A DNA stretch of 64,000 nucleotides from Euphorbia lathyris (taxonomy: Eukaryota; Streptophyta; Magnoliopsida; Malpighiales; Euphorbiaceae): NCBI RefSeq assembly GCF_963576675.1, contig NC_088910.1, forward strand, positions 109,396,807-109,460,806. Reading direction: 5' to 3'. A model generated the notes under the pieces. The model saw nothing but the letters and a program-made list of their open reading frames with translations. It was not told the DNA's origin and made no database searches. Made by a program: the position numbers and the translations under genes. This document shows positions 6,022 through 47,879 of this stretch, piece after piece (the first letter of the stretch is position 1; the number at the start of each line of letters is the position of its first letter).

Positions 6022-6027
6022 ACTAGA

Positions 6028-6657: not shown

Positions 6658-6671
6658 TCCAAGTGGGAGTA

Positions 6672-8413: not shown

Positions 8414-8755
8414 AGATCTTGGGTTTATGGAAATAGGTTAAAAAATTTATATATCCGCTGCCATACGTTAGCCTATTTTCTTTCATATATATCATAAAGG
8501 AGTGAACCAGCGCTCCAGCAAGTGCAGATTTAACAAGAGTTAGCCGACCAGCGAAAGAGAGAGAGGTTCCTTTCCAACAACTGAATTTTTTCAGATAACG
8601 GTCCACCAGAGAAAGTAGATGGCGGCTTTTAGGGGCACCCTGAAATAACGGGACCCCAAGGTAAGTAAACAGAACCTCAATGTTCCTTAATCCCAGAACA
8701 TAAGATAACTGATTGGCCCGACGGCAGGACATTATGCTGCCAAAGTAGATTGAAG
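8414..8755 (-). pseudogene. LINE reverse transcriptase C-terminal fragment
   Basis: The minus-strand frame reads KSSIYFG..., YLGVPLFQGAPKSRHLLSLVDRYLKKFSCWKGTSLSFAGRLTLVKSAL, the conserved post-catalytic region of plant L1-type reverse transcriptases. In protein order it lies upstream of the GGLGI-containing fragments found at 14590 and 56440. Its position and strand suggest it is the continuation of the LINE piece at 5620-6021, separated from it by the copia I fragment. The frame is open but partial. Confidence 0.8.
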
Positions 8756-14612: not shown

Positions 14613-16475
14613 TGTTGGGAATTAGGCTAAGGTATAGCAGCGGAAATATAAAAATTTTAGCCTACTTTCTTTTAACCATAGGATCCGTTAATCGTTATTT
14701 CATATAAAGAGGGATAAGAAGAAATACCTTTTGAAGAACAATCTACCGTTGTTAATGAAGTTCCCACAACTCTTCTCCGAGTTCCCAAGCACACAGTAAA
14801 ACACTGTGAGATTAAGTTAGAATCAACCGTATGAGATGCAACCAAAATAGATTGCCTCTTATTAATCAACACAAGATCAAAGAAAAAGGAGATAGATGAA
14901 ATTAATCGATCGATGGAAGCCGTATGAATTCTTGTCCACGAACTAGGGGAGTCGAATTCTCTTTCTCTCTCTAACTTGCAAATTTCGAAAATCACAAAGG
15001 GGAGTAATAATGGCTTGGTCGAAATTCTCATGTAGTAGGGGGTATATATAATCACTTGTATCTAAACCCTAGTTAGATAGGAATAGGTTACTTAATAGGA
15101 ATTCAATTTGGAATAGAATTCCTAATTATTATCTCACTATATATCTAATATATCTAGGATAATAATAAATAACCTTATTGGATAATAATAGGAGTATATT
15201 AATCTAATTAAAACTCCTAACTTAATTATCTCTTAAATAATTTAATTTATATTCCTAATCAAATTAGGATTAATGGAATTAAAATAATTCCTTACTAATT
15301 ATATATAAATTTCGCCCCCCCCTTAATTAAATGGGCCTTACTGGGCTCAATTGGCCTTCCATCAATTAATAACATCCATCTCTCTTTTGGTTCCAAGTCT
15401 TATGTGTGATCCATTAGGTTCTTACTACTTCTGGCCGTATGCAACTATTAAATTAATTTCTTCAAGAATTATATTTAATCTTTGCATAACGAAATGATGT
15501 ACTGAGTATGTTATTGGCAAGTCTGTAATCATTCCCCCAGAGTCCGTTAAGAAGACAGGTTGATTCTGTCGTTAACCTTTCCGTATTAGTTATACTATAA
15601 TTCGATCCTTTATCAACTACATCCTTGAACTGAATCTTATGACTATGGATGATGTCAAGTCACATATAGCGAGACGTTCATTTTACTTGTACAGGCCGAG
15701 TCAACTCAAAAAGATAGGTTAAGTGAAATCTGTATTTCTTACTCTTAAGCTATCACCTTGCAAGGATTTAGAGTCGAGTCTTCCACAAGCGATCCTTGGA
15801 TGTATCTCCCATTTATCGGGAGTGATAAATGCTCAATCCAATGTATAACTACCCTGACATTACCTCCTGTGACACCCAACCTTTGTTGTTCACACCCCAG
15901 AGTCATCTCTGTTAAGGATCGTGGGATAACAGGATCAAAGTCTCACATTCAGTAATTCAGGATGACCAATTAACATTCCTTTGAGTCTGAGGATTAGTTA
16001 TACCTATTAATACCAATGAGATGAACATGTGACAAGGATGAATCTACCCATCCTGTTATCTCAAATCGGATCCCCAATCCTAATGAACAACTTTTCATCG
16101 GATCTATGTAACTGTCCAGATATCTGTATATATGAAGCTTGTGAGATTAGCTTTCTATCGGACAGAAGACATTGTTACATACAAGTCTCAACAGTGATAT
16201 ATCAATCCTAAACATATCACTTGACTTGGGGTGGTTTTAAGTTTATTAGTTTATTATAAAGTTTTGTCTCACTTCATGCTTGTATGAACACTTTATAATC
16301 ACTTTAAATAAACTTACGGATTTCCTTTTATTAGACTTTATTTAGTGCTTAAAAGGGATTGCCTTTATATAGTTATAAAACATATATCTCATTAAAACAA
16401 ATGATATAAAGAACAATTCATTTACATTAAGTTTGTATCCTAGAACAATTGTCTATAAGACACCAAACCCCAACA
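14613..16475 (-). repeat. Copia II 3' LTR (complete)
   Basis: It begins TGTTGGGAATTAGGC and ends ACCAAACCCCAACA on the plus strand, perfect TG...CA ends with inverted TGTTGGG/CCCAACA termini, 1863 bp. The purine tract complement follows at 16476-16488. A minus-strand TATA-like run lies near 15036-15046. It is nearly identical to 31832-33047 over the shared part. It sits in the LINE with ...acaaatc to its left. Confidence 0.9.
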
Positions 16476-16488
16476 TACTCCCACTTGG
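16476..16488 (-). promoter_or_regulatory. Copia II polypurine tract
   Basis: On the minus strand the sequence ccaagtgggagta abuts the 3' LTR. The same tract precedes the copia I LTR at 6659-6671. Confidence 0.75.
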
Positions 16489-16489
16489 A

Positions 16490-17181
16490 CTAAAGCCAAT
16501 TGTTTCTAAAACTTATCCCAGTAGAAGTTAAATGAGGATCATATATTCTCTGGGTTAAAGGCTTTGTCAACGGATCTGCAACGTTGTCCTCTGTAGGTAC
16601 TCTTTCTATTCTCACATCTCCTCTAGCCACAATCTCTCTAATGATGTGGTATCGCTTAAGGTAATGCTTGGATGCATTATGAGACCGTGGTTCCTTTGCT
16701 TGCGCAATGGCTCCATTGTTATCACAGTACAGTGTAATGGGATTGACAATGTCAGGCACCACACCTAGTTCTGTAATGAACTTTCTAATCCAAACTGCTT
16801 CCTTTGCTGCTTCTGCAGTGGCGATATACTCTGACTCGGTCGTAGAGAAAGCCACGCTTCCCTGCTTGGAACTCTTCCAACTGACCGCGCCCCCATTCAA
16901 GATAAAAGGTATCCTGATTGGGATTTAAAATCGTTCTCATATGTGAGATGACTAGCGTCTGAAAATCCTTCTATTTTCAAATCTCCTTTTCCGTAGACTA
17001 GGAACATATCTTTAGTCCTTCTCAAGTACTTAAGAATGTTATTGACGGAAATCCAATGCTCGTCTCCTGGATTCCCTTGGTAACGACTTGTTATAGATAA
17101 CGCAAACGCTACGTCAGGTCTAGTGCATAGCATAGCATACATAGTCGAACCGATTGCGCTGGCATACGGGACTACAGCCAT
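16490..17181 (-). pseudogene. pol: Copia II RNase H
   Basis: Minus-strand frames cover the whole copia RNase H: VPYASAIGSTMYAMLCTRPDVAFAL, then LKYLRRTKDMFLVYG, SDAS, and, after a frame change near 16900, VSWKSSKQGSVAFSTTESEYIA, YCDNNGAIAQAKEPRSHNASKHYLKRYHIIRE and NVADPLTKPL. The acidic catalytic residues are present. The frame change between the two halves shows it is broken. It is very close to the copia I RNase H at 6028-6657. Confidence 0.88.
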
Positions 17182-17203: not shown

Positions 17204-17917
17204 TTAGGACATTGATGATTTTTTTAACTTTACTCCATGTAACATGGGTAAGTTACCTCCTTTCGATTCAAGCATGCTAAACCGATTTAGCACCTTATCA
17301 ATGTATGTAGCCTGTGAAAGACCAAGCAGTCTTCTCGATCTATCTCTATAGATCTTTATACCAAGTATATAAGCTGCTTCACCAAGGTCTTTCATTGAGA
17401 AGTTACCAGATAACCATACTTTCACTGACTATAAGAGAGCAACGTCATTTCCCATTAATAATATATCGTCCACATATAGTATGAGAAATGCTATAGAGCT
17501 CCCACTTGCTTTCTTGTCAATTCAAGCTTCTTCGCAATTTTGTTCGAAACCAAATTGTTTTATGGTTTCGTCAAAACGCTTATTCCAGCCTCTAGATGCC
17601 TGCTTGAGTCCATAAATGGATCTCTAAAGTTTGCAAACTTTATTTGCATCCTTCGATATGAAACCTTCAGGCTGCATCATATATACATCCTCAAGCAGGT
17701 TTCCGTTCAGGAAAGCTGTTTTCACATCCATTTGCCAAATCTCATAATCAAAATGAGCGACAATTGCAAGCATGATTCTGATTGATTTGGACATAGCCAC
17801 AGGAGAGAAAGTTTCGTCATAATCAATTCCTTGCTTCTGACGATATCCTTTCGCTACTAACCTAGCTTTGTAGGTGCTAACCTTTCCATCCATGTCTGTC
17901 TTCTTTTTGAAGATCCA
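17204..17917 (-). pseudogene. pol: Copia II reverse transcriptase, main part
   Basis: Reading the minus strand from 17917: KARLVAKGYRQKQGIDYDETFSPVA, QMDVKTAFLNG, YGLKQASR, then the catalytic YVDDILL (about 17470), and the thumb region GNFSMKDLGEAAYILGIKI. At least three stop codons interrupt it. The N-terminal edge of the domain (a GCRW motif) lies across the Athila-like insertion at 26129 onward. Confidence 0.87.
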
Positions 17918-18152
17918 TGGTAGGGGCGTTTCGTCCCTATCTTTTAGCGTGGTTTACGGTTTATTTTCGAGTTAAATAAATAAGTTTATTACAAAAATAG
18001 AGTGTTTTAATAAAATAATGAAATAAAAATAAAATCCGAGCTTTCGGTTAATTTCCTTTATTTTTAGTTGAATTTAGAGAATAAAATGTCAAGCTAACTC
18101 GGCTCGTGAGAAGTGTATTTCGCAGGAACAATAAGGAGCAAAAATCCACTCA

Positions 18153-18552
18153 TACGCGGGGCGTATCAACCCTTACGCGGGACGTGTAGACAAGTGTGTC
18201 AGAAATGATTGATCAATCCTGAACCACCACATGGAATCTACTCAGCATACGCGGGGCGTATGACACACTACGCGGGGCGTATGACACATGTCGGCAATAA
18301 TTGGCCTAATCCTGAAGTCAGACTGCATTGTCTCCCGGAGTCAACTCTCCATACGCGGGGCGTATCACTATGTACGCGGGGCGTAAGAGGCAGTTCTTCA
18401 ATGTAAAAAGATCAGAGACTCAAACACGCGGGGCGTACTTCAGCTACGCAGGGCGTGTTTGAGATAATTGGACATAGAATTGGTCCACATGCAGGAGATT
18501 TCTGACAGAATGGGCATATACGCGGGGCGTGTATTACCATACGCAGGGCGTG
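18153..18552 (+). repeat. Array of palindromic 13-bp doublets in U3, element A 5' LTR
   Basis: Units start at 18153/18174, 18248/18269, 18352/18373, 18425/18445 and 18519/18540. Each unit is TACGC-GGG-GCGTA or a one- to two-base variant. Within a doublet the starts are 21, 21, 21, 20 and 21 bp apart and both cores read GGG. The 7-8 bp spacers differ in sequence. The array lies directly upstream of the TATA box and is repeated in the 3' LTR at 24609-25008. Confidence 0.93.
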
Positions 18553-18629
18553 TCCTGAGATTTCTGCACCAAATAATGTTGCTCCATACTTGTACCTTGT
18601 GAAGATACAATTCTACCCCTAGCTTGATG

Positions 18630-18637
18630 TATAAATA
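18630..18637 (+). promoter_or_regulatory. TATA box of element A LTR
   Basis: TATAAATA, 78 bp after the last palindromic unit. The same spacing (79 bp start to end) is seen in element B, where TATAAATA is at 39444-39451. Confidence 0.7.
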
Positions 18638-19673
18638 AGAGTGACTAGCACTCATTTAGGGACACTACCAGGTACTACCTTCTACTATCTATCTCATACC
18701 TTTACCTTATAGTTGTTGTATAGTTTTGGTTTTAGATTCGGTGTATGTAATAAAACTCTCCCCTTTCGGGCTTGTTCGTTGATCCCGTCACTCCGTCAAG
18801 TTCCGCTCCATCATTCGTCACCAAGCTCGAGAGTTCCACCTCCAAGTCCTGAGCGACGGCCTTGAGTCCGGTTGGCTAGTTCCGAGGGCCGATTCTTCCC
18901 TCTTCGCTTGCTAACTAGCTTGCACTCTTCCTATGTACTAGGCTTGGTTGTATTCATCATTTTTATTCTCCATATTTATAATATATGATTTGTAATTTCT
19001 GTTTCTATATACGTGTTAATGTTTATTACTTGCTTTGATACTTATAATTGACTATTGTGTAGGGGAACGCGATTTCCGACGCCATCCGGGCTATCTTTAG
19101 GGATTCATATAGGTGTTGCCTTACTGGAAGTGACGCTCTGGAAACCGTAGGAATTGACACACCACGGAACTTACGGGCCCTAGTTTCTGATCCCCAGCAT
19201 TAGACACGCCTTGACTAGGAATCACGTAGTCTAAGTACTTCACGGGTCGGTCGAACTACACATAGCCGTCTTTGCAAGAATAGATTATCAATCGCATATA
19301 TATTCGGAGTCTTTGTTTGTCATATTTATAACTTATCGTCGCCATTGCACTTCGTAGAGTATTTGTTATATAAAATCTGCCTCACCAATAGTTTAGGAGT
19401 AGTTAGTAGTTGTCACCAAAACCCCTTTAAAGTATTCACCGCTTAAATAACGTATAAAACCGAGTCGTTTAATACTTGTAGTTATAAATCCCGTGGATTC
19501 GATACCCGATCTTAACCGGATTATTACTTGATACGACGGGGTACACTTGCCCCTAAGTAGTGACGTCTAGTGAATTTAGAGCAATTAGAAAGACCACATC
19601 CATAGTTCCATAGCACACTCATATCACACTACATCCGTAAACACACCGCTAGACGAAACACACATCAAGTTTT

Positions 19674-20619: not shown

Positions 20620-21221
20620 TACGCGGGGCGTACACACCCTTACGCCCCGCGTGTTCCGGGCTCTGCTCTTTTTCATAGCAAAAATTACAGAGGATGCGGG
20701 GCGTCCCTACTCCACGCCCTGCGTGTTTCCCTGTTCTACAAAGAATAAAAAGGCCACGTGTAGGGATACGCAGGGCGTCCCTTCAGACACGCCCCGCGTA
20801 TCCTGGGGAGCTGCGAAATGCAGATTCCCCATGGCAACCTTTCCTCTTTCCTCTCCCATCAATCACCTCTTCCCCAAAAATCTTTCCCACTTCTCCACTC
20901 CACATCCCTTTCTCTCCAATCACATCACAACCTTTCCAAATCCATAATAAATTCATCTTAATTACTCATTAGAATAATAAAAACATTAAATACACCATTA
21001 AAACCCATAAAAATTTGAAAAGACTAAATTCAAAAAAAAAAAACGAGCACTCACGCGGGACGTACCCATGAGTACGCCCCGCGTCTCCGCCTTCTCCCAG
21101 AAAAAAATCTAACTAGGAGACTTGACACGCAGGGCGTCCCACACGGTACGCCCCGCGTGTCCAACCGAAATAAAGTCATAAGGCGGGATACGCAGGACGT
21201 GGCCCCTTCACGCCCCGCGTG
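20620..21221 (+). repeat. Inverted palindromic doublets upstream of the element A ORF
   Basis: Six doublets: 20620/20641, 20693/20713, 20767/20788, 21052/21073, 21126/21147 and 21189/21209 (starts of the 13-bp units). Here the first unit has a GGG-type core and the second a CCC-type core, so each doublet can fold as a 13-bp stem with a 7-8 nt loop. The last is extended by AGGCGGGA/TCCCGCCT arms. DNA between them is AT- or CT-rich and non-coding. Confidence 0.9.
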
Positions 21222-21360
21222 TCCCGCCTAGGAATCCGAACACTCTTGGATTCCCCCTTCTTTTTCTATTTAAACTTACCCTCCTTTTCCCCTTTCTTCC
21301 TCACAAATCACTCTAACCTTCCCCACTATCTCTTCATTCTTACTTCCCCCTCATACAACC

Positions 21361-22574
21361 ATGACCCAAAGCAAGTGACCCGCGATTGACCACCCCCCAC
21401 GGGCCACTCGTGCTCGCTCCGCTCGTTCTACCCAAAATCAACCATCCCCCGACCGGGAAGAAACTCCACCCCTCACCCGACAATACCGGGCACCCTTCCA
21501 CCTTCTCTCCGAGGCCAAAGCCGAGGCTTATCACACCCTCTCCACCAATCAGCCCTTGATCCTCCCGTACTTCACATTGGACATTCTCGAGCATGACAAC
21601 GTGCGTGATGCTTTTGTAGAGCGCCTCCGCACTCTTGGTTTGGAGGACCACTTCCGGGCTCGTCATCATGTTTATCCATCTTTGGTGTTGGAATTTTTCA
21701 CCACCATGGCTTCCAACAATGTCCCGGGTGCAGCCCTTTTCACCTTCCGTCTACATAACAACCCCTTCTCCATTGACACTCAATGGATCCGCACTCACTT
21801 CACCAAACAAACCGAAGAGGGCATCACTGTATGGCCGGATGGCGTCTCCGCTAAGGAATTCTGGACCTCCATCACCGGGTCCAACAAATTTGACGTCTCC
21901 AACCTTCGACCATCATGCATCCGAGACCCCGGCCTCCAACTTCTCCACCGGTTCATCAATTATTATTTCTCGGGAAATCGGAGGCCGTCAAGGTGAACAT
22001 ACACGAACTACTTGCCCTCTATTGTGCCGAGAATAAGCTCGCTTACGATTGGTCCTATCTTGTGGCGGTCCACCTCCACGCAATGCCACGACGGAAGCGG
22101 GCTCAACTCGGTTTGGGCCACCTCATCACTATCTTCGCCACCTCCGCCCTCGGCGCAAACACCTTGGATCACCTCCCAAGCCACGAACCACGGCCGCTAA
22201 GTAAAAACGCTTTCAAATCCCTTGGGCAGCCTACTTCCGGTCCGGGGGAGAGTTCGGGGGCAGCCCGACATGCGGGGGAGGCCCAATATCAAGGGGATAG
22301 CGGTTCGGACTCGGACATGGGGCTTAATTTTAGTCCTCCACCCAACCATGACTTTAACGCCATTTATGGTCGGTTGGATATCTTGGAGGATAACCAACGG
22401 CGGGACCGGGTTCATTATGACGCCCAATTTGCCACCCTCAACACCCGCTTCGATACCATTGAGGCACAACAACGTGAGGACCGGACCCATATCGATACTC
22501 GTTTCGATGCCCTCACCGCCTCCTTCGCTTCCTACTTCAACCTCCATGGCAATCCGCCTCCACCTCAACACTAG
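21361..22574 (+). pseudogene. ATHILA-ORF-like protein of element A, frameshifted
   Basis: A frame from ATG 21361 is stopped at codon 6 (TGA 21376-21378), runs on to about 21970, then continues in another frame to TAG 22572-22574 after what looks like a one-base deletion. The product resembles the plant ATHILA ORF-1 or putative plant transposon protein families: DREETPPLTRQYRAPFHLL, VYPSLVLEFFTTM, DTQWIRTHF, WPDGVSAKEFWTSITG, LLHRFINYYF and a C-terminal heptad-like segment (GRLDILEDNQRRD). Function is unknown. Element B has a matching frame at 43067-44274. Confidence 0.75.
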
Positions 22575-24372
22575 TTCCCTTTCCTTTTTGTTTTTCTTAT
22601 GATGTTTTTGTTGTTCTTTTTGTTGTTGTTAATGTACTTTCTGTTTATTTTATTATTTTAGTGATTTTCGTTTATGTTTCGTATTGTTTTTCGTTTATTT
22701 TTGTAATAACACGACGCAGGGCGTACCCCATGGCACGCCCCGTGTCCCTTCATTTTTATGTTTAAAAATGGTTCAGAAACTCAAACACGCGGGGCGCCTC
22801 TTTCCCACGCCCCGCGTATTTGAGTCTCTGCCCAAAAACATTGCAAAACGTACTGGTTACGCGGGGCGCCCCTGTGGGCACGCCCCGCGTAACCCCTGAC
22901 CACTAAGGGTCCTCTTTTTCTTTTCCTTTCTCACTTTATTTTCGTTTTTGTTTTTGTTTTCCTTTCTTTTTGCGACGCCCTTGGAATAGGCGTCATTTTA
23001 AATAACGCGGAGGGACGTGCAACCCCGCACTTAACATTTGTTTTGCACTACCAAAAACAAAAATAAAAATAAAATAAACAACAAAATAATTAAACTAATT
23101 TATTGACTCTCTTAAATTTTCCCGACACGCTATCCCTCCTTTGAAAATTAATTAAAGTTCCGTTATTTGTCATCAAAAATAAAAGTATCGGAACATAAAA
23201 GGAATGATTCGATGAAGAAATTTTAGTCTTGGTTTTGAAATTAGGGAATTTGTGCAAAGCTTAGGTTAGTACTAAACTAAGGCATTGAGTCCTAACCCAA
23301 TTGTTATCTCCATAATGAACTTTAAAAAGGCAATAAAAACGGGATAGTTGAGAATTTAGCGAAAACTTGATAGTGCACAATTTGAACCCGAATCTTTGTG
23401 AGGTATTTTTGAGCCTAAAAGAGTTCGTACGAGAACTCTAATTCTTTCACAATTTTTCGAGAGCTTTGACTTCACTCGACTCATAGAATTTGCATCAAAT
23501 ACCGGGTTAAGTATACTTATTTGTGGTGAAAACGGCAATAGATGATCAACCGAACCCACTTAGGCTAATTTTTCTTAATTTATTTTTCTCGTTTTCATTA
23601 AACATTAGGAAACCCCTTCGAGCCTAATAACCCATTTTTTTGTTAATACCCTTTTATCATTCAACCCCTTTTTCCTCTTGTCCAAATACCGACAAAATCA
23701 ATTTGCACCCGAATTATCCGAAATAAGTCACGACCTTAGCAAATGAGCACCATAAGATTTCAAAATTTTGTTTTTGTGCCTCTATCAAAACAAAGGATAC
23801 AATAAAAGTAAAAAGGCATTCTCAAGCTCCACCCGAGCAATTTTGAAGTATATCTTGTAAAATTCGCTAAGGCCGAAGCAAAATGCGGTGCGATCATAAG
23901 TCAGTATTTTGGAACTTGAGTTTCTCAAAAACTAACCACTGAAAAACCTCCCACATTACAACCCCACTCCGGGTTCATTTTTAATATTGCCTAACCATAT
24001 TTTAAGAGGAAAAACCCGGATAAAAATGCAAAATTCAACATGATCTCGAGTAAGTGCAAAGAAGAGCGATAAAGCACCGACCCACCTAAAATTGAGCGTA
24101 AGAGCGAAATTCCGTGGTGAGGTACTATCGGGTTCTCATAAGATAATCAACCCCCATTAATATTGCCTATTAATCTTGATCATGGAGGTTTCAAACAAGT
24201 TTTGTACTCAATTGTTTGCGTAGGTACTTACCGAAACTTTTGCATAAAACCGTAACTTTGAAACCACGCACTTGGTAAAACCCCGAAGGTTTGTTTCTTA
24301 ATCATCTCAATCCCTTGTCTTTCGATTTCTTTTTACTTGAGGACAAGTAAAACTTTAAAGTCCGAGGAGGTT
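22575..24372 (+). other. Non-coding 3' internal region of element A
   Basis: No gene is visible. Three inverted doublets of the 13-bp unit lie at 22713/22734, 22786/22806 and 22858/22879. From about 22915 to 24372 the sequence is shared at high identity with 44630-46087 of element B, including the phrase ggaataggcgtcattttaaa and a short GC word pair around gcggagggacgtgcaacc. The purine-rich gaggaggtt at its end probably serves as polypurine tract. Confidence 0.75.
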
Positions 24373-26123
24373 TGATAGGGGCGTTTCGTCCCTATCTTTT
24401 AGCGTGGTTTACGGTTTATTTTCGAGTTAAATAAATAAGTTTAATTACAAAAATAGAGTGTTTTAATAAAATAATGAAATAAAAATAAAATCCGAGCTTT
24501 CGGTTAATTTCCTTTATTTTTAGTTGAATTTAGAGAATAAAATGTCAAGCTAACTCGGCTCGTGAGAAGTGTATTTCGCAGGAACAATAAGGAGCAAAAA
24601 TCCACTCATACGCGGGGCGTATCAACCCTTACGCGGGACGTGTAGACAAGTGTGTCAGAAATGATTGATCAATCCTGAACCACCACATGGAATCTACTCA
24701 GCATACGCGGGGCGTATGACACACTACGCGGGGCGTATGACACATGTCGGCAATAATTGGCCTAATCCTGAAGTCAGACTGCATTGTCTCCCGGAGTCAA
24801 CTCTCCATACGCGGGGCGTATCACTATGTACGTGGGGCGTAAGAGGCAGTTCTTCAATGTAAAAAGATCAGAGACTCAAACACACGGGGCGTACTTCAGC
24901 TACGCAGGGCGTGTTTGAGACAATTGGACATAGAATTGGTCCACATGCAGGAGATTTCTGACGGAATGGGCATATACGCGGGGCGTGTATTACCATACGT
25001 GGGGCGTGCCCTGAGATTTCTGCACCAAATAATGTTGCTCCATACTTGTACCTTGTGAAGATACAATTCTACCCCTAGCTTGATGTATAAATAAGAGTGA
25101 CTAGCACTCATTTAGGGACACTACTAGCTACTACCTTCTACTATCTATCTCCTACCTTTACCTTATAGTTGTTGTATAGTTTTGGTTTTAGATTCGGTTT
25201 ATGTAATAAAACTCTCCCCTTTCGGGCTTGTTCGTTGATCCCGTCACTCCGTCAAGTTCCGCTCCATCATTCGTCACCAAGCTCGAGAGTTCCACCTCCA
25301 AGTCCTGAGCGACGGCCTTGAGTCCGGTTGGCTAGTTCCGAGGGCCGATTCTTCCCTCTTCGCTTGCTAACTAGCTTGCACTCTTCCTATGTACTAGGCT
25401 TGGTTGTATTCATCATTTTTATTCTCCATATTTATAATATATGATTTGCAATTTCCGTTTCTATATACGTGTTAATGTTTATTACTTGCTTTGATACTTA
25501 TAATTGACTATTGTGTAGGGGAACACGATTTCCGACGCCATCCGGGCTATCTTTAGGGATTCATATAGGTGTTGCCTTACCGGAAGTGACGCTCCGGAAA
25601 CCGTAAGAATTGACACACCACAGAACTTACGTGCCCTAGTTTCTGATCCCCAGCATTAGACACGCCTTGACTAGGAATCACGTAGTCTAAGTACTTCACG
25701 GGTCGGTCGAACTACACGTAGCCGTCTTTGCAAGAATAGATTATCAATCGCATATATATTCGGAGTCTTTGTTTGTCATATTTATAACTTATCATCGCCA
25801 TTGCACTTCGTAGAGTATTTGTTATATAAAATCTGCCTCACCAATAGTTTAGGAGTAGTTAGTAGTTGTCACCAAAACCCCTTTAAAGTATTCACCGCTT
25901 AAATAACGTATAAAACCGAGTCGTTTAATACTTGTAGTTATAAATCCCGTGGATTCGATACCCGGTCTTAACCGGATTATTACTTGATACGACGGGGTAC
26001 ACTTGCCCCTAAGTAGTGACGTCTAGTGAATTTAGAGCAATTAGAAAGACCACATCCATAGTTCCATAGCACACTCATATCACACTACATCCGTAAACAC
26101 ACCGCTAGACGAAACTTACATCA
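24373..26123 (+). repeat. 3' LTR of Athila-like element A
   Basis: This 1751-bp LTR starts TGATAGGGG, ends ACTTACATCA and repeats every feature of the 5' LTR, including the doublet array at 24609-25008. Several differences from the 5' copy are C-to-T or G-to-A changes at CG sites inside the 13-bp units (for example TACGTGGGGCGTA). It is followed by the target duplication ATCCA. Confidence 0.92.
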
Positions 26124-38653: not shown

Positions 38654-38658
38654 GAGAC

Positions 38659-40466
38659 TGATAGGGGTATTTTACTCCTATCTTTTAGCGTGATTTACGG
38701 GATGATTTTGGATAAAATGAATAAGTTTAATTACAAAAATAGAGTGTTTTAATAAAATAATAAAATAAAAATAAAATCCAAGCTTTCGGTTAATTTCCTT
38801 TATTTTTAGTCGAATTTAGAGAATAAAATGTCAAGCTAACTCGGCTCTCAAGTTGTGTATTTCAGGTACGAGAAAGGAGCAAAAATCCACTCAATACGCG
38901 GGGCGTAGTACCCTGTACGCGGGGCGTGAAACATGGTGCCAGAAATGATTGCCTTATCCGCAGGCACCATGTGGAACTGTCTCAGCATACACGGGGCGTA
39001 TGCCATTTTACGCGGGGCGTATGACACATGTCGGCAATAATTGTCCTAATCCTGAAAGTCAGACTGCATTGTCTCCCGGAGTCAACTCTCCATACGCGGG
39101 GCATATCATTACTTACGCGGGGCGTAAAAGGCAGTTCTTCAACGTAAAAAGATCAGAGACTCATTTACGCGGGGCGTACTTCAGCTACGCACGGCGTAAA
39201 TGCTCCAATTCTAGCAATAAAACTTCAGAGACTCAAACACGCGGGGCGTATTTCAGCTACGCAGGGCGTGTATGAGACAATTAGACAAGGAATTGGTCCA
39301 CATGCAGAAGATTTCTGACGGAATGGGCATTTACGCGGGGCGTAAACCACTTTACGTGGGGCGTATCATGGGATTTCTGCACCAAATAATGTTGCTCCAT
39401 GCTTGTGCTTTGTGAAATTACCAACCTGCCCTTGCTTGATGCCTATAAATAGATAGTTCTTGAACTTCATTTGACACCAATTGCATACTAGAGAGCTATA
39501 CTATACTCTTTTCTTTCCTTGTAATTTAGATTCAAATTTTGTAGTTAAACTCTCCCCCTCGAGAGCTTGTTCGGTTGTTCCGGCGTTCCATCGAAGTTTC
39601 GCTCCATCATTCGTCACCAAGCTCGAGAGTTCCACCTCCACGACCTAGGAGACGGCTTTGAGTCCGGTTAGCTAGTTCCAAGGGCGGATTCTCCCTTTTT
39701 ACATGCTAATTAGCTTGTACTCTTCCTATGTATTAGGCGTGGTTGTATTTCATCTAAACATTCTCCATATTTATAATTCATGGTTTATAATCTCCATTTC
39801 CCTTTACGTGTTAATGTTTATTGCTTGTTTTGATATTGATAATTGATTATTGTGTAGGAGCACGCGATTACCGCCGCCATCCGGGTTATCTTTTGGGAAT
39901 TATATAGGTGTTGCCCTACCGGAAGTGACAAACCGGAAACCGTAGGAATTGACAAGCCACGGAACTTACGGGCCCTAATTTCTAGTTCCCCCGCATTAGA
40001 CATGCCTTGACTAGGAATCACGTAGTCTAAGTACTTCACGGGTCGGTCTTGCTACACTTGGTCGTCTTTGGAAGAGTAAACCATTATCCGTATACATTTG
40101 GAGTTATTATCTATCGTGGTTATAACTTATCACACACACCCCCACTTCGTAGAGTTTTAGCTACATGAGTCTGTGTCGCCAATAGTTAGGAATAGTGTGT
40201 AGTTGTGTCTTACTTTCCTCCAAAGTAATCACCGCTTAAATAACATACGAAACCGAGTCGTCTAATACTTGTAATTATAAATCCCATGGATTCGGTACCC
40301 GGTCTTAACCAGATTATTACTTGATACGACGGGGTACACTTGCCCCTAAGTAGTCGTTGCGTCTAGTGAATTTAGAGCACTTAGAAAAGACCACATCCAT
40401 AGTCCCATAGCACACTCATATCACACCACATCCGTAAACACACACCGCTAGACGAATTACGCATCA
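38659..40466 (+). repeat. 5' LTR of Athila-like element B
   Basis: 1808 bp, TGATAGGGG...ACGCATCA. Six doublets of the 13-bp unit lie at 38895-39365, followed by TATAAATA at 39444-39451. The rest is non-coding and similar to the element A LTR. It is 21 bp longer than its 3' partner because it keeps one more 13-bp unit with spacer. Confidence 0.92.
38895..39365 (+). repeat. Array of palindromic 13-bp doublets in U3, element B 5' LTR
   Basis: Doublet unit starts: 38895/38916, 38988/39009, 39093/39114, 39166/39186, 39238/39258, 39332/39353, that is 21, 21, 21, 20, 20 and 21 bp apart. Cores are GGG-type in both units apart from one variant (ACGG). Two doublets (39166, 39238) share the spacer ttcagc and look like recent copies of each other. 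In the 3' LTR the array spans 46324-46773 and lacks exactly one unit of the second doublet. Confidence 0.93.
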
Positions 40467-40626: not shown

Positions 40627-42082
40627 TGCACACCCGATCTAAAAGTGATTCTCTCGTACCTATTGATCTCGAAATTGAACGTACTCTTTGTAGGTTACGT
40701 AGAGAGAAAATGGCAAACCCCAACGCCGAGGTCAACCAACCCAACGGAAACCCAAGGCCACACGTGAACATCATCGTCCCCAAAATCGTAACGGCATTGT
40801 CGCTCCCACGATTCCGGCCAACACATATGAGATCAAGACCGGAATGATCCAACTGATACAACAATGCGGTCAATTCGGAGGGGAACTCCATGAGAACCCC
40901 AACGAACATTTGGATAAATTTCTTATGTGTGCCGATACCTCTCGACAAAATGGTGTTCCCGTTGAGGCTGTGAGACTGAAATTGTTTCCTTTTTCATTGA
41001 CAGGACAGGCGTTGGAGTGGCTACACTCATTAGAGGCGGGATCCATCACGTCATGGGAAAAGCTTGAAAAGGAGTTCATCTCCTACTATTTCCCGCCGTC
41101 CAAAACAGTTAAGTTACGGACCGATATCACATCCTTCAGGCAGTTGGAATGCGAGGCCCTTCACGCAGCTTGGGCTAGGTTCCGGAAGTTGCTCCGAAAC
41201 TGCCCCCACCATGACATCCCAAAGCACGACTTGGTAAGCACTTTTTACCACGGGTTAACCCCCACTAACCGTGCGACCATTGATTCCGCTGCAGGTGGGG
41301 ATCTATTTCAGAAGTCAGCTAGTGAGGCCTACGAGCTCATTTATGAGCTCGCAAGGAAAAGTGTGCAATGGCAAGAGGATCGGCTTGCTGGCCCGTCGCG
41401 ACACCAGACATTCGTTGTGGAGAAAGAGGCCCCGAAAAGCTCCATAGCTGAAATGAACAAGAAGCTTGACTCGTTGATCGCCCAACTAAGCCTCAATAAA
41501 AGTGTACAGGTCATGATGTGCACTCACTGTGGTGGAGACCATGATGCGTTTAATTGCCAAATCGGTAGCCCCTTCGCAGGCGATGCCGAAAACGTAAGTT
41601 TTATAGGAGGTAACCAAAGGTATAATTCCCATCCGAACTCCTATTGTCACCACAATAATAATAATAACAGCGGATGGAGGCCGCGGTATCAACACTCGAA
41701 CTTATCATATGGCAACAATAATAACGTGTTGAGGCCCCCATCCGGCTTTGAGCAAGAATTTCGGGAAAACGGGCTCGGGCAATCACAAGCCGCGCCCGGA
41801 AATCGAAACGCTCCGCCCTCCAACAATGTATATGACCAATCGGTCACGTCTTTGTTGAAGGACATATTAACTCATCTTTCCGATAGCGAAGTGTTTTGTA
41901 GGGATCTTAGTCGCCAGGTGGCCCACCTGAACCGTCAACAACAAGAAAGGCCACTAGGAACCCTCCCGGCGAATACTGAACAAAATCCGCGGGGTAAGAA
42001 TCGAGAATCCGGACAAGTGATAACGCTCCTCAACAATAGGAGTTCGGACCCGTCAAGCTCCAACGCAGACGTCTTGCAATAA
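40627..42082 (+). pseudogene. gag: Athila-type gag of element B, one frameshift
   Basis: The likely start is ATG 40627 (MHTRSKSDSLVP). A frameshift between about 40740 and 40790 puts the rest in the frame that is open to TAA 42080-42082. The capsid part is typical: QFGGELHENPNEHLDKFL, LFPFSLTGQALEWLHSL, GSITSWEKLEKEFISYYFPP, WARFRKLLRNCPHH and FYHGLTPTNR. One CCHC knuckle (CTHCGGDHDAFNC, about 41519-41557) and an N-rich region follow. About 480 codons in total. The frame is open for 412 codons after the shift, so decay is slight. Confidence 0.85.
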
Positions 42083-43066
42083 GCCGCCATATAAGAAAGT
42101 CGAGCTACTTCGACTCAAAACGTAGCATCGGTTTGAATCCCTCGAACCATTTGTCTATATGTATCATAAACATTGTTTCTTTTCTTTATTTTGCATTATG
42201 GTGGTTTTACCTTCATCTTCAGCTTCATTTTGCTTTCTTCCTTTTTCTTTTATTTTACTCTCTTAAAAATCAAAAGAAAAACAAATCCCACATTAATCCA
42301 AAATTTTACAAATACGCGGGGCGTACAACCCATCGCGCCCCGCGTAGTTGTGTTTTCTGCCGCTTTCAATTAATAAAGAACACGCTACGCGTGGCGTACC
42401 TATATTTACGCCCCACGCCGCGCGTATCCTCGGGGAGTTGTGAATCACAACTCCCCATGGCAACTCCCCATCTCTCAAACTTCTAATCACTCCTCTTCCC
42501 TATACACCTTTTCCACTTCCACACTCCACCTCCTCTTCCACCCTATCAATTCTCACCCTTTCAAATTCAAATTCCCACCTTCCCTCCACAATAAATTATC
42601 ATTAACCACCATCATTAATTACCCATAAATAAAACATAAAAATCATAAAATAATTAAAAATCATTAAACCCTCATAAGTCCACAAAAAATTAGAAAATTA
42701 CCAAAAACCACAAAAGATCCCTCCTCTCCCGTCTGATTACGCGGGGCGTAACCCCATTTACGCCCCGCATCCCTGCCCTTTTTGCCACGAAAAGGGGGCA
42801 GGAGAACCGATACGTGTGGCGTAACCCTACTTACGCCGCGCGTATCTCACCGATTTTTCATCCAATAACGTCAGGAGGAGGGATACGCGGAGCGTGGCCC
42901 CTTCACGCCCCGCGTACCCCTCTGGGAATCCGAGCTTTGCTTGGATTCCCCACTCCTCTCCTATATATAACTCATCTCTCTTCCTCTTCTTCCCTCACTA
43001 TTCTCTCAACTCCTTCCCAACCTCTTCACACCTTCTCTCAAGCTTTCTCCATCCCTCACCCTAACC
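42083..43066 (+). other. Non-coding region with inverted doublets, element B
   Basis: Between gag and the second ORF. It starts with the gtcgagctacttcgactc word shared with element A. Five inverted doublets of the 13-bp unit start at 42313/42334, 42386/42407, 42738/42759, 42811/42832 and 42884/42904. Intervening DNA is CT-rich and AT-rich. A tatatataac TATA-like run precedes the ORF at about 42962. Confidence 0.8.
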
Positions 43067-44274
43067 ATGACCCGAAGCAAACAAGCTGCCATTAACACCC
43101 CCCTTGACCAACAAATGCAAGCTCACCGAGCTTGCACCTCACGATCCTCCCGGTCCACCCAAAATCAACAACCACCACCACCCGACCGGGAAGACACTCC
43201 ACCACTCACCCGCATATACCGGGCACCTTTCCACCTTCTCACCGAGGAGGAAGCCCTCCGGTACGAAGCCCTTTGTGCCGCCACCGTCATGGAGCTTCCC
43301 TACATCCCACGGAGCGTGCTCGATCAACACGATCTTGGCATGCCTTTTGAAGCTCGTCTCCGTGCCCTCGGGTGGTACGACATGTATAGCACGGAATACC
43401 ATGTGTATCCCTCCTTGGTGATCGAGTTCTTCACCTCCCTCACCTCCAACAATGTGCCCGGAGCCGCCCTCTTCAACTTTCGCCTCCATAACTGCCCCTT
43501 CACCATTGACACTCAATGGCTCCGCACCCACTTCACTCATCAAGCGGAGCCTAGCATCGCCCATTGGCCCGACGGTGTCTCCGCCCCTGAATTTTGGACC
43601 TCCATTACCGGGTCCAATGACTATCACGTCTCCAACCTCCACCCGGCTAGTATTCGTGACCCCATTCTCCAATTGCTTCACCGCTTCATCTCCTTCTACT
43701 TCACGGGGAAGTCGGAGTCCACCAAGGTCAACAAACATGAGCTGTTGGCCCTCTACTGTTGTGTCAACGGGCTCACCTACGACCTTGCCTACCATGTGGC
43801 TCTTCACCTCCGTGCCACTCCCATCCGGAAAAGGGCTAAGCTCGGGTTTGGCCACCTCGTCACCATCTTCGCCCTCTCCAAACTCGGCTCCGATGCCATT
43901 GAGCACCTCCCACGCCTTGTGCCTCGACCCATAGACAAAAATGCTTTTAAATCCTTGACTACACCAACTTCCGGCCCGGGTGAAACCTCGGGGGCTGCCA
44001 ACTCCGATGCGGGGGGGGGGGGGATTCGGACTCAGATTTGGGTCTCAATTTTAGTCCCCCACCGCTTCACGACTTCAATGCCCTCTACACTCGGTTGGAT
44101 ATCCTCGAGGACAACCAACGTCGTGATCGAGCCTATTTTGACACCCAGTTCAATACCCTCGAGGCACAACAGCGGGAGGACCGGGCTCATATCGACACTC
44201 GTTTCGATGCCCTCACCGCTTCCTTCGCTTCCTACTTCAACCTCCATGGCAATCCACCTCCACCTCAACAATAG
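43067..44274 (+). pseudogene. ATHILA-ORF-like protein of element B
   Basis: The frame opens at ATG 43067 and is continuous for about 315 codons, then is shifted by a run of 13 G at 44011-44023; the matching C-terminus (DILEDNQRRDRAYF... to HGNPPPPQQ) is in another frame ending at TAG 44272-44274. Recognisable segments are DREDTPPLTRIYRAPFHLL, VYPSLVIEFFTSL, DTQWLRTHF, WPDGVSAPEFWTSITG and LLHRFISFYF. It resembles ATHILA ORF-1 or putative plant transposon protein families of unknown function. Except for the G run it has no visible defect. Confidence 0.78.
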
Positions 44275-46087
44275 TTCCCTTTCCTTTTTGTTCTTCTTAT
44301 GCTGTTTTTTGTTGTTCTTTTTTTTTTTGTTAATGTACTGTCTGTTTAAATTTATTATATTAGTGATTTCCATTTGAGTTTTGTGTTCTTTGTGCATTTA
44401 TTTTACTGTTTCTAATGAAATTACGCAGGGCGTATTCCATGGTACGCCCCGCGTACCCTTTATTTTCATACGCCAAATGGTTCAGAAACTCAAACACGCG
44501 GAGCGTCCCCCAATTGCGCCCCGCGTATTTGAGTCTCTGCCCAAAAACACAACCAAATATACTGGTTACGCGGGGCGCCCCTGTGGGCACGCCTCGCGTA
44601 ACCCCTGACCCCTAAGGGTCTTCTTTTTCTTTTCCTTTCTCACTTTATTTTCGTTTTTGTTTTTGTTTTCATTTCTTTTTACGACGCCCTTGGAATAGGC
44701 GTCATTTTAAATAACGCGGAGGGACGTGCAACCCCGCACTTAATGTTTGTTTTGCACTACCAAAAACAAAAATAAAAATAAAATAAACAACAAAATAATT
44801 AAACTAATTTATTGACTCTCTTAAATTTTCCCAACACGCTATCCCTCCCTCGGAAATTAATTAAAGTTCCGTTATTTGTCATCAAAAATAAAAAGTGTCG
44901 GAACATAAAGGAATGATTCAATGAAGAAATTTTAGTCTTGGTTTTGAAATTAGGGAATTTGTGCAAAGCTTAGGTTAGTACTAAACTAAGGCATTGAGTC
45001 TTAACCCAATTGTCATCTCCATAATGAACTTTGAAAAGGCAATAAAAACAGGATAGTTGAGAATTTAGTGAAAACTTGATAGTAAACAATTTGAACCCGA
45101 ATCTTTGTGAGGTATTTTTGAGCCTAAAAGAGTTCGTACGAGAACTCTAATTCTTTCACAATTTTTCGAGAACTTTGACTTCACTCGACTCATAGAATTT
45201 GCATCAAATACCGGGTTAAGTACACTTATTTTTGGTAAAAAGGCAATAGATGATAAACCGAACCCACTTAGGCTAATTTTTCGTAATTTATTTTTTTCGT
45301 TTTCATTAAACATTAGGAAACCCCCTCGAGCCTATTAACCAACTTTTCTTTTGTTAATACCCTTGTACTAATTAACCCTTTTTCCTCTTGTTCAAATACC
45401 GACATAATAAAGTTACACCCGAATCACCCGAAATAAGTCACGGCCTTAGCAAATGAACACCATTAGCTCTCAAAATATTGTTTTTGTGCCTCTATGAAAA
45501 CAAAGGACACAACAAAAATAAAAAGGCATTCTCAAGCTCCACCCGAGCAATTTTGAAGTATATTCTATAAAATTGGCAAAGGCTGAAATAAACGATGATG
45601 CGGTGCAATCATAAAACGGTATTTTTGAACTCGAGTTTTCAAAAATTAACCACTAAAAAGCCACCCACATTACAACCCCCCTCCGGGTTCATTTTTAATA
45701 TTGCCTAACCATATTTTAAGAGGAAAAACCCGGATAAAAATGCAAAATCAACATGATCTCGAGTAAGTGCAAAGAAGAGCGATAAAACACCGACCCACCT
45801 AAAATTGAGCGTAAGAGCGAAATTCCTTGGTGAGGTACTATCGGGTTCTCAAAAGATAATCGACCCTGTTGATATTGCCTATTAAATCTTGATTATGGAG
45901 ATTTCAAACAAGTTTTTGTACTCAATTGTTGGCGTAGGTAATTACCGAAACCTTTGCACAAAACCATAACTTTGAAATCACGCACTTGGCAAAACCAACC
46001 TTCGGTTTGTTTCTTAATTTTCTCAATCCATTGTCTTTCGATTTCTTTTACTTGAGGACAAGTCAAACTTTAAAGTCCGAGGAGGTT
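44275..46087 (+). other. Non-coding 3' internal region of element B
   Basis: Three inverted doublets start at 44422/44443, 44495/44515 and 44567/44588. From about 44630 to the 3' LTR the sequence parallels 22915-24372 of element A with small indels, but no coding frame is shared. It ends in gtccgaggaggtt, the probable polypurine tract. Confidence 0.75.
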
Positions 46088-47874
46088 TGATAGGGGTATT
46101 TTACCCCTATCTTTTAGCGTGATTTATGGGATGATTTTGGATAAAATGAATAAGTTTAATTACAAAAATAGAGTGTTTTAATAAAATAATAAAATAAAAA
46201 TAAAATCCAAGCTTTCGGTTAATTTCCTTTATTTTTAGTCGAATTTAGAGAATAAAATGTCAAGCTAACTCGGCTCTCAAGTTGTGTATTTCAGGTACGA
46301 GAAAGGAGCAAAAATCCACGCAATATGCGGGGCGTAGTACCCTGTACGCGGGGCGTGAAACATGGTGCCAGAAATGATTGCCTTATCCGCAGGCACCATG
46401 TGGAACTGACTCAGCATACGCGGGGCGTATGACACATGTCGGCAATAATTGTCCTAATCCTGAAAGTCAGACTGCATTGTCTCCCGGAGTCAACTCTCCA
46501 TACGCGGGGCGTATCATTACTTACGCGGGGCGTAAAAGGCAGTTCTTCAACGTAAAAAGATCAGAGACTCGTTTACGCGGGGCGTACTTCAGCTACGCAC
46601 GGCGTAAATGCTCCAATTCTAGCAATAAAACTTCAGAGACTCAAACACGCGGGGCGCATTTCAGCTACGCAGGGCGTGTATGAGACAATTAGACAAGGAA
46701 TTGGTCCACATGCAGGAGATTTCTGACGGAATGGGCATTTACGCGGGGCGTAAACCACTTTACGCGGGGCGTATCATGGGATTTCTGCACCAAATAATGT
46801 TGCTCCATGCTTGTGCTTTGTGAAATTACCAACCTGCCCTTGCTTGATGCCTATAAATAGATAGTTCTTGAACTTCATTTGACACCAATTGCATACTAGA
46901 GAGTTATACTATACTCTTTTCTTTCCTTGTAATTTAGATTCAGATTTTGTAGTTAAACTCTCCCCCTCGAGAGCTTGTTCGGTTGTTCCGGCGTTCCATC
47001 GAAGTTCCGCTCCATCATTCGTCACCAAGCTCGAGAGTTCCACCTCCATGACCTAGGAGACGGCTTTGAGTCCGGTTAGCTAGTTCCAAGGGCGAATTCT
47101 CCCTTTTTACTTGCTAATTAGCTTGTACTCTTCCTATGTATTAGGCGTGGTTGTATTTCATCTAAACATTCTCCATATTTATAATTCATGGTTTATAATC
47201 TCCATTTCCCTTTACGTGTTAATGTTTATTGTTTGTTTTGATATTGATAATTGATTATTGTGTAGGAGCACGCGATTACCGCCGCCATTCGGGTTATCTT
47301 TTGGGAATTATATAGGTGTTGCCCTACCGGAAGTGACAAATCGGAAACCGTAGGAATTGACAAGCCACGGAACTTACGGGCCCTAATTTCTAGTTCCCCC
47401 GCATTAGACACGCCTTGACTAGGAATCACGTAGTCTAAGTACTTCACGGGTCGGTCTTGCTACACTTGGTCGTCTTTGCAAGAGTAAACCATTATCCGTA
47501 TACATTTGGAGTTATTATCTATCGTGGTTATAACTTATCACACACACCCCCACTTCGTAGAGTTTTAGCTACACGAGTCTGTGTCGCCAATAGTTAGGAA
47601 TAATGTGTAGTTGTGTCTTACTTTCCTCCAAAGTAATCACCGCTTAAATAACATACGAAATCGAGTCGTCTAATACTTGTAATTATAAATCCCGTGGATT
47701 CGATACCCGGTCTTAACCGGATTATTACTTGATACGACGGGGTACACTTGCCCCTAAGTAGTCGTTGCGTCTAATGAATTTAGAGCACTTAGAAAAGACC
47801 ACATCCATAGTCCCATAGCACACTCATATCACACCACATCCGTAAACACACACCGCTAGACGAATTACGCATCA
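46088..47874 (+). repeat. 3' LTR of Athila-like element B
   Basis: 1787 bp, TGATAGGGG...ACGCATCA, followed by the target duplication GAGAC. It carries five doublets plus one single unit where the 5' LTR has six doublets. Confidence 0.92.
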
Positions 47875-47879
47875 GAGAC

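What the first reader, a model, noticed from the sequence alone, without database searches (positions are those of the whole stretch)
18153..18552. Palindromic doublets with fixed 20-21 bp spacing in the LTR promoter of element A
Five pairs of a 13-bp near-palindrome (TACGC-GGG-GCGTA) lie directly upstream of the TATA box. Within each pair the starts are 21, 21, 21, 20 and 21 bp apart, that is two helical turns, while the 7-8 bp spacer sequence changes (tcaaccct, tgacacac, tcactatg, cttcagc, tattacca). Constant spacing with variable spacers suggests binding of a dimeric or paired protein on one DNA face, or a conserved RNA or DNA fold. I know of no such LTR array.
Basis: seen in the sequence. 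Interest (0 to 1): 0.88.

Follow-up and report, generated by a model that had tools for sequence, protein, structure and literature searches.

The report
Phased palindrome doublets in plant retrotransposons
Several different jumping-gene families in one spurge-like plant genome carry the same short palindrome, nearly always in pairs two DNA turns apart and usually ahead of a start-of-transcription signal, which looks like a shared docking code for an unknown protein.

Summary
The five doublets are real and as described. They lie in U3 of element A, an Athila-like Ty3 element without a pol ORF seen, 77 bp before a TATA box. They are not confined to two copies: in the window's own genome (1.02 Gb, Euphorbia-like) the 13-mer with up to one mismatch occurs 50,788 times, its reversed control 1,056 times. 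In 36 fetched stretches plus the window, 509 of 528 strict sites have a partner at 20-21 bp, about 6% expected. Distances between doublets are mostly 52, 72-74 or 83-84 bp, near whole helical turns; 265 of 266 neighbour distances in 30 LTR arrays are in phase, and 19 of 23 linker clusters. Three LTR families with different primer-binding sites carry the arrays. Beyond the finding: internal arrays around ORF2 are inverted (GGG..CCC) and, in element A, fold as strong hairpins. Best reading: cooperative sites for an unidentified dimeric DNA-binding protein driving LTR transcription; no binding or expression data. Closest kind: palindromic repeat arrays of Sireviruses (PMC2829016). New variant of a known kind.

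The parts
17913..17917 (.). target-site duplication ATCCA, left copy (right copy 26124-26128)
   Evidence: read directly
17918..19667 (+). element A, 5' LTR (3' LTR 24373-26123)
   Evidence: self-alignment 98.5%; ends read; primer-binding-site region from 19668
18153..18552 (+). five head-to-tail doublets of YACGCRGGGCGTR in U3 of the 5' LTR
   Evidence: neighbour distances 21,74,21,83,21,52,20,74,21
18630..18637 (+). LTR TATA box (TATAAATA), 77 bp after the last site
   Evidence: 28 of 36 F1 LTR clusters have a TATA match 77-80 bp after the last core
20620..20800 (.). element A internal array i1: three inverted doublets (GGG..CCC)
   Evidence: RNA fold z -8.4
21052..21221 (.). element A internal array i2: three inverted doublets upstream of a TATA-like box and ORF2
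   Evidence: RNA fold z -9.3
21267..21273 (+). TATA-like box (TATTTAA), putative internal promoter of ORF2
   Evidence: B has TATATATA at the same distance (42962); promoter activity not tested
21361..22574 (+). element A ORF2 region (frames overlap; no Pfam match), homologue of B ORF2
22713..22891 (.). element A internal array i3: three inverted doublets downstream of ORF2
   Evidence: RNA fold z -10.4
24609..25008 (+). element A 3' LTR array (five doublets)
38659..40466 (+). element B 5' LTR (3' LTR 46088-47874; TSD GAGAC 38654-38658 / 47875-47879)
38895..39365 (+). element B 5' LTR array (six doublets, TATA at 39444)
40703..42082 (+). element B gag ORF (Retrotrans_gag PF03732, E 2e-23)
42313..42426 (.). 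element B array i1 (two doublets, the second rearranged)
42738..42916 (.). element B array i2 (three inverted doublets), TATATATA at 42962
43067..44377 (+). element B ORF2, weak below-cut-off matches to PF20167 and PF03078 (ATHILA ORF-1)
44422..44600 (.). element B array i3 (three inverted doublets)
46324..46773 (+). element B 3' LTR array; one doublet reduced to a single site at 46417

Best explanation
The arrays are cis-regulatory DNA. Each 13-bp near-palindrome is a site for a dimeric, sequence-specific DNA-binding protein; two dimers sit two helical turns apart on the same face, and successive doublets lie a whole number of turns apart, so that a phased, probably cooperative assembly forms ahead of the TATA box and raises transcription from the LTR. 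The internal inverted arrays may do the same for ORF2, which has a TATA-like box about 45 bp after array i2. Shown: the sites, their pairing, phasing, conservation in the LTR, place before TATA matches, and occurrence in three LTR families. Inferred: a protein, cooperativity, activation, an ORF2 promoter. Unknown: whether the protein is host- or element-encoded. A host factor is favoured because F1 proteins tested (gag, RT, integrase, ORF2) found only one distant gag match in nine F2/F3 stretches, though those stretches show their elements only in part.
For: (1) Pairing: 509 of 528 strict sites have a partner (up to four mismatches) at 20/21 bp, about 6% expected. (2) Phasing: 265 of 266 neighbour distances in 30 F1 LTR arrays lie within 0.2 turn of a multiple of 10.46 bp. 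After grouping related linkers, 19 of 23 clusters are in phase, Rayleigh p about 4e-6; without clusters of modal length 52, 15 remain, p 0.004. (3) Selection: between A and B LTRs the sites differ by 5.4% (7/130), spacers by 46% (18/39), other array DNA by 13.5% (31/229) and LTR outside the array by 18.9% (250/1325); in the i1-i2 region sites 16% (22/137) against 36-45% elsewhere. Within LTR pairs sites differ at 8/273 (all transitions) and the rest, spacers aside, at 45/3188; McDonald-Kreitman-like Fisher p 5.6e-4. (4) In 30 F1 LTR arrays mean diversity is 0.124 in sites, 0.184 in linkers, 0.368 in spacers. (5) Position: a TATA match 77-80 bp after the last core in 28 of 36 F1 LTR clusters, 157-162 bp in 4 of 4 F3, 192-222 bp in 4 of 6 F2, and 41, 46, 46 and 66 bp after array i2 in four fetched copies. 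(6) Presence in F1, F2 and F3, whose primer-binding sites differ.
Against: No protein, binding, expression or methylation data. Copies are related, so most counts are not independent; the fairest phasing test has 23 clusters, one of which pools 67 linkers of several lengths, and a looser grouping gave only 7 clusters and p about 0.02. The centre (RGG) is kept and oriented: no diverging pair among 215 strict neighbours, 4 of 296 in the relaxed set, which a purely symmetric dimer does not need. Inverted doublets have complementary flanks and fold well, which a protein-only model does not require. In the i3 region sites (9/78) are no more conserved than DNA outside the array (26/296). Internal array i1 has a linker of 57-60 bp, half a turn out of phase. 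Three copies with pol ORFs (L015, L017, L026) have an internal array with no ORF2 between pol and array, and 8 of 9 i3 clusters have no TATA match within 400 bp, so the ORF2-promoter part is weak; a review states that env-like genes are transcribed from the 5' LTR (PMC7264820, passage). Of 36 F1 LTR clusters, 3 have the TATA match at 101-102 bp, 2 at 63 and 67 bp, and 3 none; no chance control was run for TATA matches.
Confidence: 0.6

Rival explanations
1. The doublets act as RNA (or single-stranded DNA) hairpins: in element transcripts they fold and serve packaging, translation of ORF2 or stability, or are cut into small RNAs by the host.
For: Internal arrays of element A fold far better than shuffles (z -8.4, -9.3, -10.4). 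Flanks of inverted doublets are complementary at six of six positions tested (p 0.026 or less, 77 distinct doublets). Palindromic Sirevirus LTR regions are small-RNA hotspots (PMC10760457 and PMC5311732, passages).
Against: LTR doublets are head-to-tail with GGG opposite GGG and fold only modestly better than shuffles (z -2.9; control stretch -1.1). Whole-turn spacing has no clear meaning for RNA. Covariation of the end bases across a doublet is weak: outer pair p 0.014 (head-to-tail) and 0.08 (inverted), inner pair p 0.59 and 0.13 (relatedness not removed).
Confidence: 0.2
2. The arrays are a by-product of tandem duplication of a unit of about 73 bp; spacing is inherited and has no function.
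For: A start-to-start step of 72-74 bp between doublets recurs in LTR and internal arrays; B has a repeated 72-73 bp unit that A lacks; two of nine F2-F3 array pairs share linker sequence (z 11.1 and 5.5).
Against: In LTRs sites are conserved while spacers diverge at fixed length. Linker clusters of different sequence and of 31, 52, 74, 84 and 125 bp are in phase. CpG-rich sites persist between elements although they decay after insertion.
Confidence: 0.1
3. The arrays position or exclude nucleosomes, or form a CpG island that shapes methylation, without one dedicated factor.
For: TA steps at both ends of the perfect site and the 21-bp repeat give an approximately 10.5-bp rhythm, and 73 bp is half a nucleosome (from sequence and general knowledge). 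CpG observed/expected in the four LTRs is 1.10-1.16 against 0.86 for the window (0.96-1.06 in LTRs once sites are masked).
Against: The TA ends are often absent (T 0.71 at position 1, A 0.59 at position 13), while positions 2-12 hold 0.9-1.8 bits each (sites were chosen by these inner 11 bases, which biases the comparison).
Confidence: 0.07

Closest known systems
Palindromic repeated motifs (RM) of Sireviruses, Ty1/copia (Bousios et al. 2010, PMC2829016; sections 9 and 10 and passages read)
   Same: Many copies of a CG-rich palindrome in the upstream part of the LTR ahead of the TATA box; further copies next to the env-like gene; CpG-rich
   Different: Here the elements are Ty3/Athila-like plus two other LTR families; the motif is YACGCRGGGCGTR without a CGG-CCG core; 20-21 bp doublets and whole-turn distances; head-to-tail in LTRs but inverted inside; copies also after ORF2. 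In that paper the words helical and spacing were found only in the reference list.
Maize Sirevirus LTR palindromes as small-RNA hotspots (Bousios et al. 2016; not held; seen only as cited in passages of PMC10760457 and PMC5311732)
   Same: Palindromes in the LTR cis-region with predicted secondary structure
   Different: No small-RNA data here; only the internal arrays, not the LTR array, fold strongly
VANC-bound motif arrays of VANDAL DNA transposons, Arabidopsis (PMC5735166, passages; PMC10398659, abstract)
   Same: Dense short motifs in non-coding parts of an element, evolving by tandem-repeat change
   Different: VANDALs have a known element-encoded binding protein; none was identified here, and three LTR families carry the motif
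Oligo-ls350 FISH probe in an Asteraceae study (PMC11598091, one table passage)
   Same: The probe contains TACGCGGGGCGTG
   Different: One motif in a repeat probe, no doublet; may be chance. A lead only.

Membership tests
LTR retrotransposon (elements A and B) | two LTRs, target-site duplication, primer-binding site, polypurine tract | tested here: met
   LTR pairs 98.5% and 97.3%; TSD ATCCA and GAGAC; primer-binding-site region and purine-rich tract seen
Athila lineage (Ty3) | Ty3-type gag | tested here: met
   B gag: PF03732 E 2e-23; PF19259 below its cut-off
Athila lineage (Ty3) | Athila-type additional (env-like) ORF | tested here: inconclusive
   B ORF2 matches PF20167 and PF03078 (ATHILA) only below their cut-offs; no protein homologue at E 1e-3 among 7,992 candidates scored
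Athila lineage (Ty3) | placement in a reverse-transcriptase tree | not tested
   no pol domain in the A and B ORFs scanned; copies with RT or integrase ORFs exist (L015, L017, L026) but no tree was built
Sirevirus | Ty1/copia polymerase and gag | tested here: not met
   gag is Ty3-type; copies with the same LTR type carry PF00078 and/or RT_RNaseH and integrase domains, and gag PF03732
Sirevirus | palindromic repeats ahead of the LTR TATA box and near an env-like gene | tested here: met
   works-alike only, not membership
Sirevirus | CGG-CCG palindrome core | tested here: not met
   site is YACGCRGGGCGTR; one of the 13 published motifs also lacks that core (Tnd-1)
VANC/VANDAL-type anti-silencing system | element-encoded VANC protein with DUF1985/DUF287 | tested here: inconclusive
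   no such Pfam match among the proteins scanned (6, 10, 2), but not every ORF was scanned
VANC/VANDAL-type anti-silencing system | loss of methylation caused by the bound protein | not testable with these tools
   no methylation data

The most novel reading that the evidence does not exclude
One plant genome holds a retrotransposon-wide promoter code: LTR families that are otherwise unalike, with and without pol, have converged on or exchanged the same helically phased doublet enhancer, read by one protein, so that a single factor controls tens of thousands of sites; the inverted internal version adds a second promoter or a hairpin layer.
Probability: 0.35. Interest if true: 0.8.

Novelty: new variant of a known kind. 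Interest (0 to 1): 0.6.

Why it matters
How plant retrotransposons keep working promoters under silencing, and whether families share trans-acting factors, is open. A defined 34-bp doublet with strict geometry, tens of thousands of sites and at least three families can be tested directly: one pull-down or DAP-seq experiment could identify the factor and show whether it is a host protein exploited by several families. If confirmed, it would extend a feature described in Sireviruses to Ty3 elements.

Tried and rejected
Rejected: that the doublets are peculiar to one element or two copies; that LTR doublets are mainly RNA hairpins (against 43-45); that spacing is loose. Led nowhere: gag and motif searches of viral contigs (no match); protein search with B ORF2 (none at E 1e-3); tRNA scan (none); exact 13-mer in papers (none). 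Literature: searches; a statement that something was not seen in print rests only on these listings and on the parts read. Passages of PMC11963269 and PMC7264820 were also seen. A first linker grouping was too loose (7 clusters, p about 0.02) and was replaced by a stricter one; both are reported. Not done: structure prediction of ORF2, a tree of reverse transcriptases, folding of the B arrays.

Dropped or limited rows: of the 100 places listed, all on contig C1 below 9 Mb, 98 lie in the stretches fetched and two (7577551, 7581111) do not. The eight 3-kb loci overlap these stretches and were left out of all counts. One search used the 30 F1 LTR arrays with at least seven sites, a TATA match within 140 bp and 40 bp before the first site; its site columns were labelled by similarity to the motif, which favours low diversity. 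Five stretches served as their own family references (L011, L019, L020, L025, L027); L021, L034, L040 and L042 did not. F2 may hold two subfamilies: L025 aligns with L019 and L027 only in short pieces. In one search the reduced doublet at 46417 was left out. In one search the direction of search for TATA followed the majority strand of the sites, so some internal clusters, among them B i2 and L028, were searched on the wrong side; B i2 was checked, L028 was not.

Full report
Observation. The ten sites, five doublets and spacings of the finding are exact. The same array recurs in the other LTR of element A (24609-25008) and, with six doublets, in element B (38895-39365), whose 3' LTR copy has lost one member of one doublet (46417). 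Window-wide, 59 13-mers match at least 9 of 10 arm bases against 0.6 expected. In this window sites with up to two mismatches occur only in A and B.

Setting. A and B are LTR retrotransposons: LTRs of about 1.75-1.81 kb, 98.5% and 97.3% alike within elements and about 80-87% between them, target-site duplications ATCCA and GAGAC, primer-binding site beginning TTGGCGCC. B has a Ty3-type gag ORF and an ORF2 with sub-threshold ATHILA/PF20167 matches; no pol domain was found in the ORFs scanned, so they are probably non-autonomous. The right flank of A carries Ty1/copia ORFs; the left flank was not scanned. The gag's nearest named proteins are from Euphorbia lathyris and E. peplus (60% identity), and contig C1 (143.1 Mb) is close in length to the E. 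lathyris contig listed there (142.9 Mb), so the host is inferred to be a Euphorbia, perhaps E. lathyris.

Internal arrays. Between gag and ORF2 (i1, i2) and after ORF2 (i3) the second member of each doublet is inverted. Spacing is again 20-21 bp, one rearranged B doublet aside, and doublets mostly repeat at 72-74 bp; in A one linker is shorter by one turn (42 instead of 52). As RNA the A arrays fold with z -8.4, -9.3 and -10.4; the LTR array gives -2.9 and a control LTR stretch -1.1. Flanks of inverted doublets are complementary beyond shuffles: A p 0.0002 (9 doublets), B p 0.005 (8); LTR doublets p 0.24 (11). In the larger set flank positions 1-6 are each significant for inverted doublets (77 distinct), but only positions 2-3 for head-to-tail ones (177 distinct), where positions 5-6 pair less than shuffles. 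Array i2 is followed after about 45 bp by a TATA-like box in A (TATTTAA, 21267) and B (TATATATA, 42962).

Genome. The 13-mer with up to one mismatch is found 24,932 + 25,856 times in 1.02 Gb; its reversed control 502 + 554. Thirty-six stretches that hold 98 of the 100 listed places, plus the window, contain 530 strict 11-mer sites and 22 reversed-control sites. Neighbour distances of 120 bp or less number 451: 215 at 20-21, 69 at 52, 98 at 72-74, 27 at 83-84, 7 at 93-95, the rest scattered. Orientations at 20-21: 150 head-to-tail, 49 converging, 16 head-to-tail on the other strand, 0 diverging (4 diverging of 296 in the relaxed set). With partners allowed four mismatches, 509 of 528 sites are paired.

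Phasing. In 30 F1 LTR arrays 265 of 266 neighbour distances are within 0.2 turn of whole turns of 10.46 bp; the exception is 68 bp. Copies are related, so linkers were grouped by sequence: 23 clusters, 19 in phase, p about 4e-6; without clusters of modal length 52, 15 remain, p 0.004. An earlier, too loose grouping gave 7 clusters, 6 in phase, p about 0.02. Exceptions over all families: a 57-60 bp linker in i1 and single or few linkers of 28, 49, 50, 68 and 70 bp.

Conservation. Between the A and B LTRs the sites differ at 7 of 130 positions, spacers at 18 of 39, other array DNA at 31 of 229, LTR outside the array at 250 of 1,325. In i1-i2 the figures are 22/137 for sites, 17/38 for spacers, 137/356 and 127/350 for the rest. 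In i3 sites differ at 9/78, spacers 8/23, other array DNA 18/78 and DNA outside the array 26/296, so there sites are not the most conserved part. Within LTR pairs sites differ at 8 of 273 (all transitions) and the rest of the LTR, spacers aside, at 45 of 3,188 (p 0.07 for the difference). Sites therefore decay at least as fast after insertion but are kept between lineages (Fisher p 5.6e-4). Spacers vary most in LTR arrays (0.368 against 0.184 for linkers) at fixed length.

Families. All 69 clusters of two or more sites match one of three LTR families after masking of sites: 59 F1 (A/B-like), 6 F2 and 4 F3 (some F2/F3 stretches are their own references, see Tried and rejected). With sites masked, F1, F2 and F3 LTRs share no blastn alignment at E 0.01 except one exact 18-mer between F1 and F3. 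Primer-binding sites differ: TTGGCGCC (F1, window), TGGTATCAGAGC (F2; L027, L034), TTGGCACGCCCAGTGGGA (F3; L011, L020). An F3 stretch encodes a gag 29% identical to that of B over 164 residues. LTR pairs support F2 (96.9%, L027) and F3 (98.4%, L020/L021) as LTR elements. Site-masked linkers of F1 and the others are at most marginally alike (18 pairs, z up to 3.9); of nine F2-F3 pairs one is clearly alike (z 11.1) and one moderately (z 5.5), which suggests exchange of array units. F1-type copies with gag-protease ORFs (L014, L024) or RT and/or integrase ORFs (L015, L017, L026) exist; the last three have an internal array between the pol ORFs and the 3' LTR without an ORF2 match.

Mechanism. Fixed spacing with free spacers, whole-turn distances, base-specific conservation of an 11-bp core and a recurrent place ahead of TATA matches point to DNA read by a dimeric protein bound on one face. 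Shown: geometry, conservation in LTRs, sharing. Inferred: the protein, cooperativity and activation. That the internal arrays form an ORF2 promoter is less secure, since pol-bearing copies have such an array without ORF2 and a review holds that env-like genes are transcribed from the 5' LTR (PMC7264820, passage). The inverted arrays may instead work as RNA hairpins or as a dyad-symmetric assembly; the data do not decide.

Known kinds. Sireviruses carry palindromic repeats ahead of the LTR TATA box and, where an env gene is present, upstream of it (PMC2829016, sections 9-10 read); the paper also relates a hypothesis of an internal env promoter (passage). The present arrays resemble those but belong to other families, with another motif and strict doublet geometry. 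VANC-target arrays (PMC5735166, passages) are a looser parallel.

Noticed in passing
window 9587-10210, 50368-50889, 58973-59494 (-): Polygalacturonase-like (GH28) ORFs in large repeated segments: Pfam match for the first two, the third by DNA identity only.
   Followed up: partly
window 6022-8478 / 14620-17124: Large inverted repeat, 86% identical over about 2.5 kb.
   Followed up: no
window 26105-29821 (-): Ty1/copia gag and integrase ORFs next to the right end of element A.
   Followed up: partly
window 2081-4375: A second Ty3-type pol ORF (RT, RNase H, integrase); its part of the window has no site with up to two mismatches.
   Followed up: no
window 42432-42456 and 20805-20830: An extra inverted repeat after array i1 in both A and B, with different letters in the two elements, as if pairing were kept.
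   Followed up: no
window 46417: A doublet in the B 3' LTR reduced to one site by a gap of 13 site bases and 8 spacer bases, as expected from recombination between the two members.
   Followed up: partly
L019 1303-1376: Four sites in a row at 21-bp steps in an F2 array, an expansion that keeps the phase.
   Followed up: no
L020 6720-8738; L027 7016-8755: Long ORFs in F3 and F2 stretches with no Pfam match; the L020 one was read and looks acidic and repetitive.
   Followed up: partly
window 34242-34560: Short repeated stretch, 78-84% identical, not examined.
   Followed up: no
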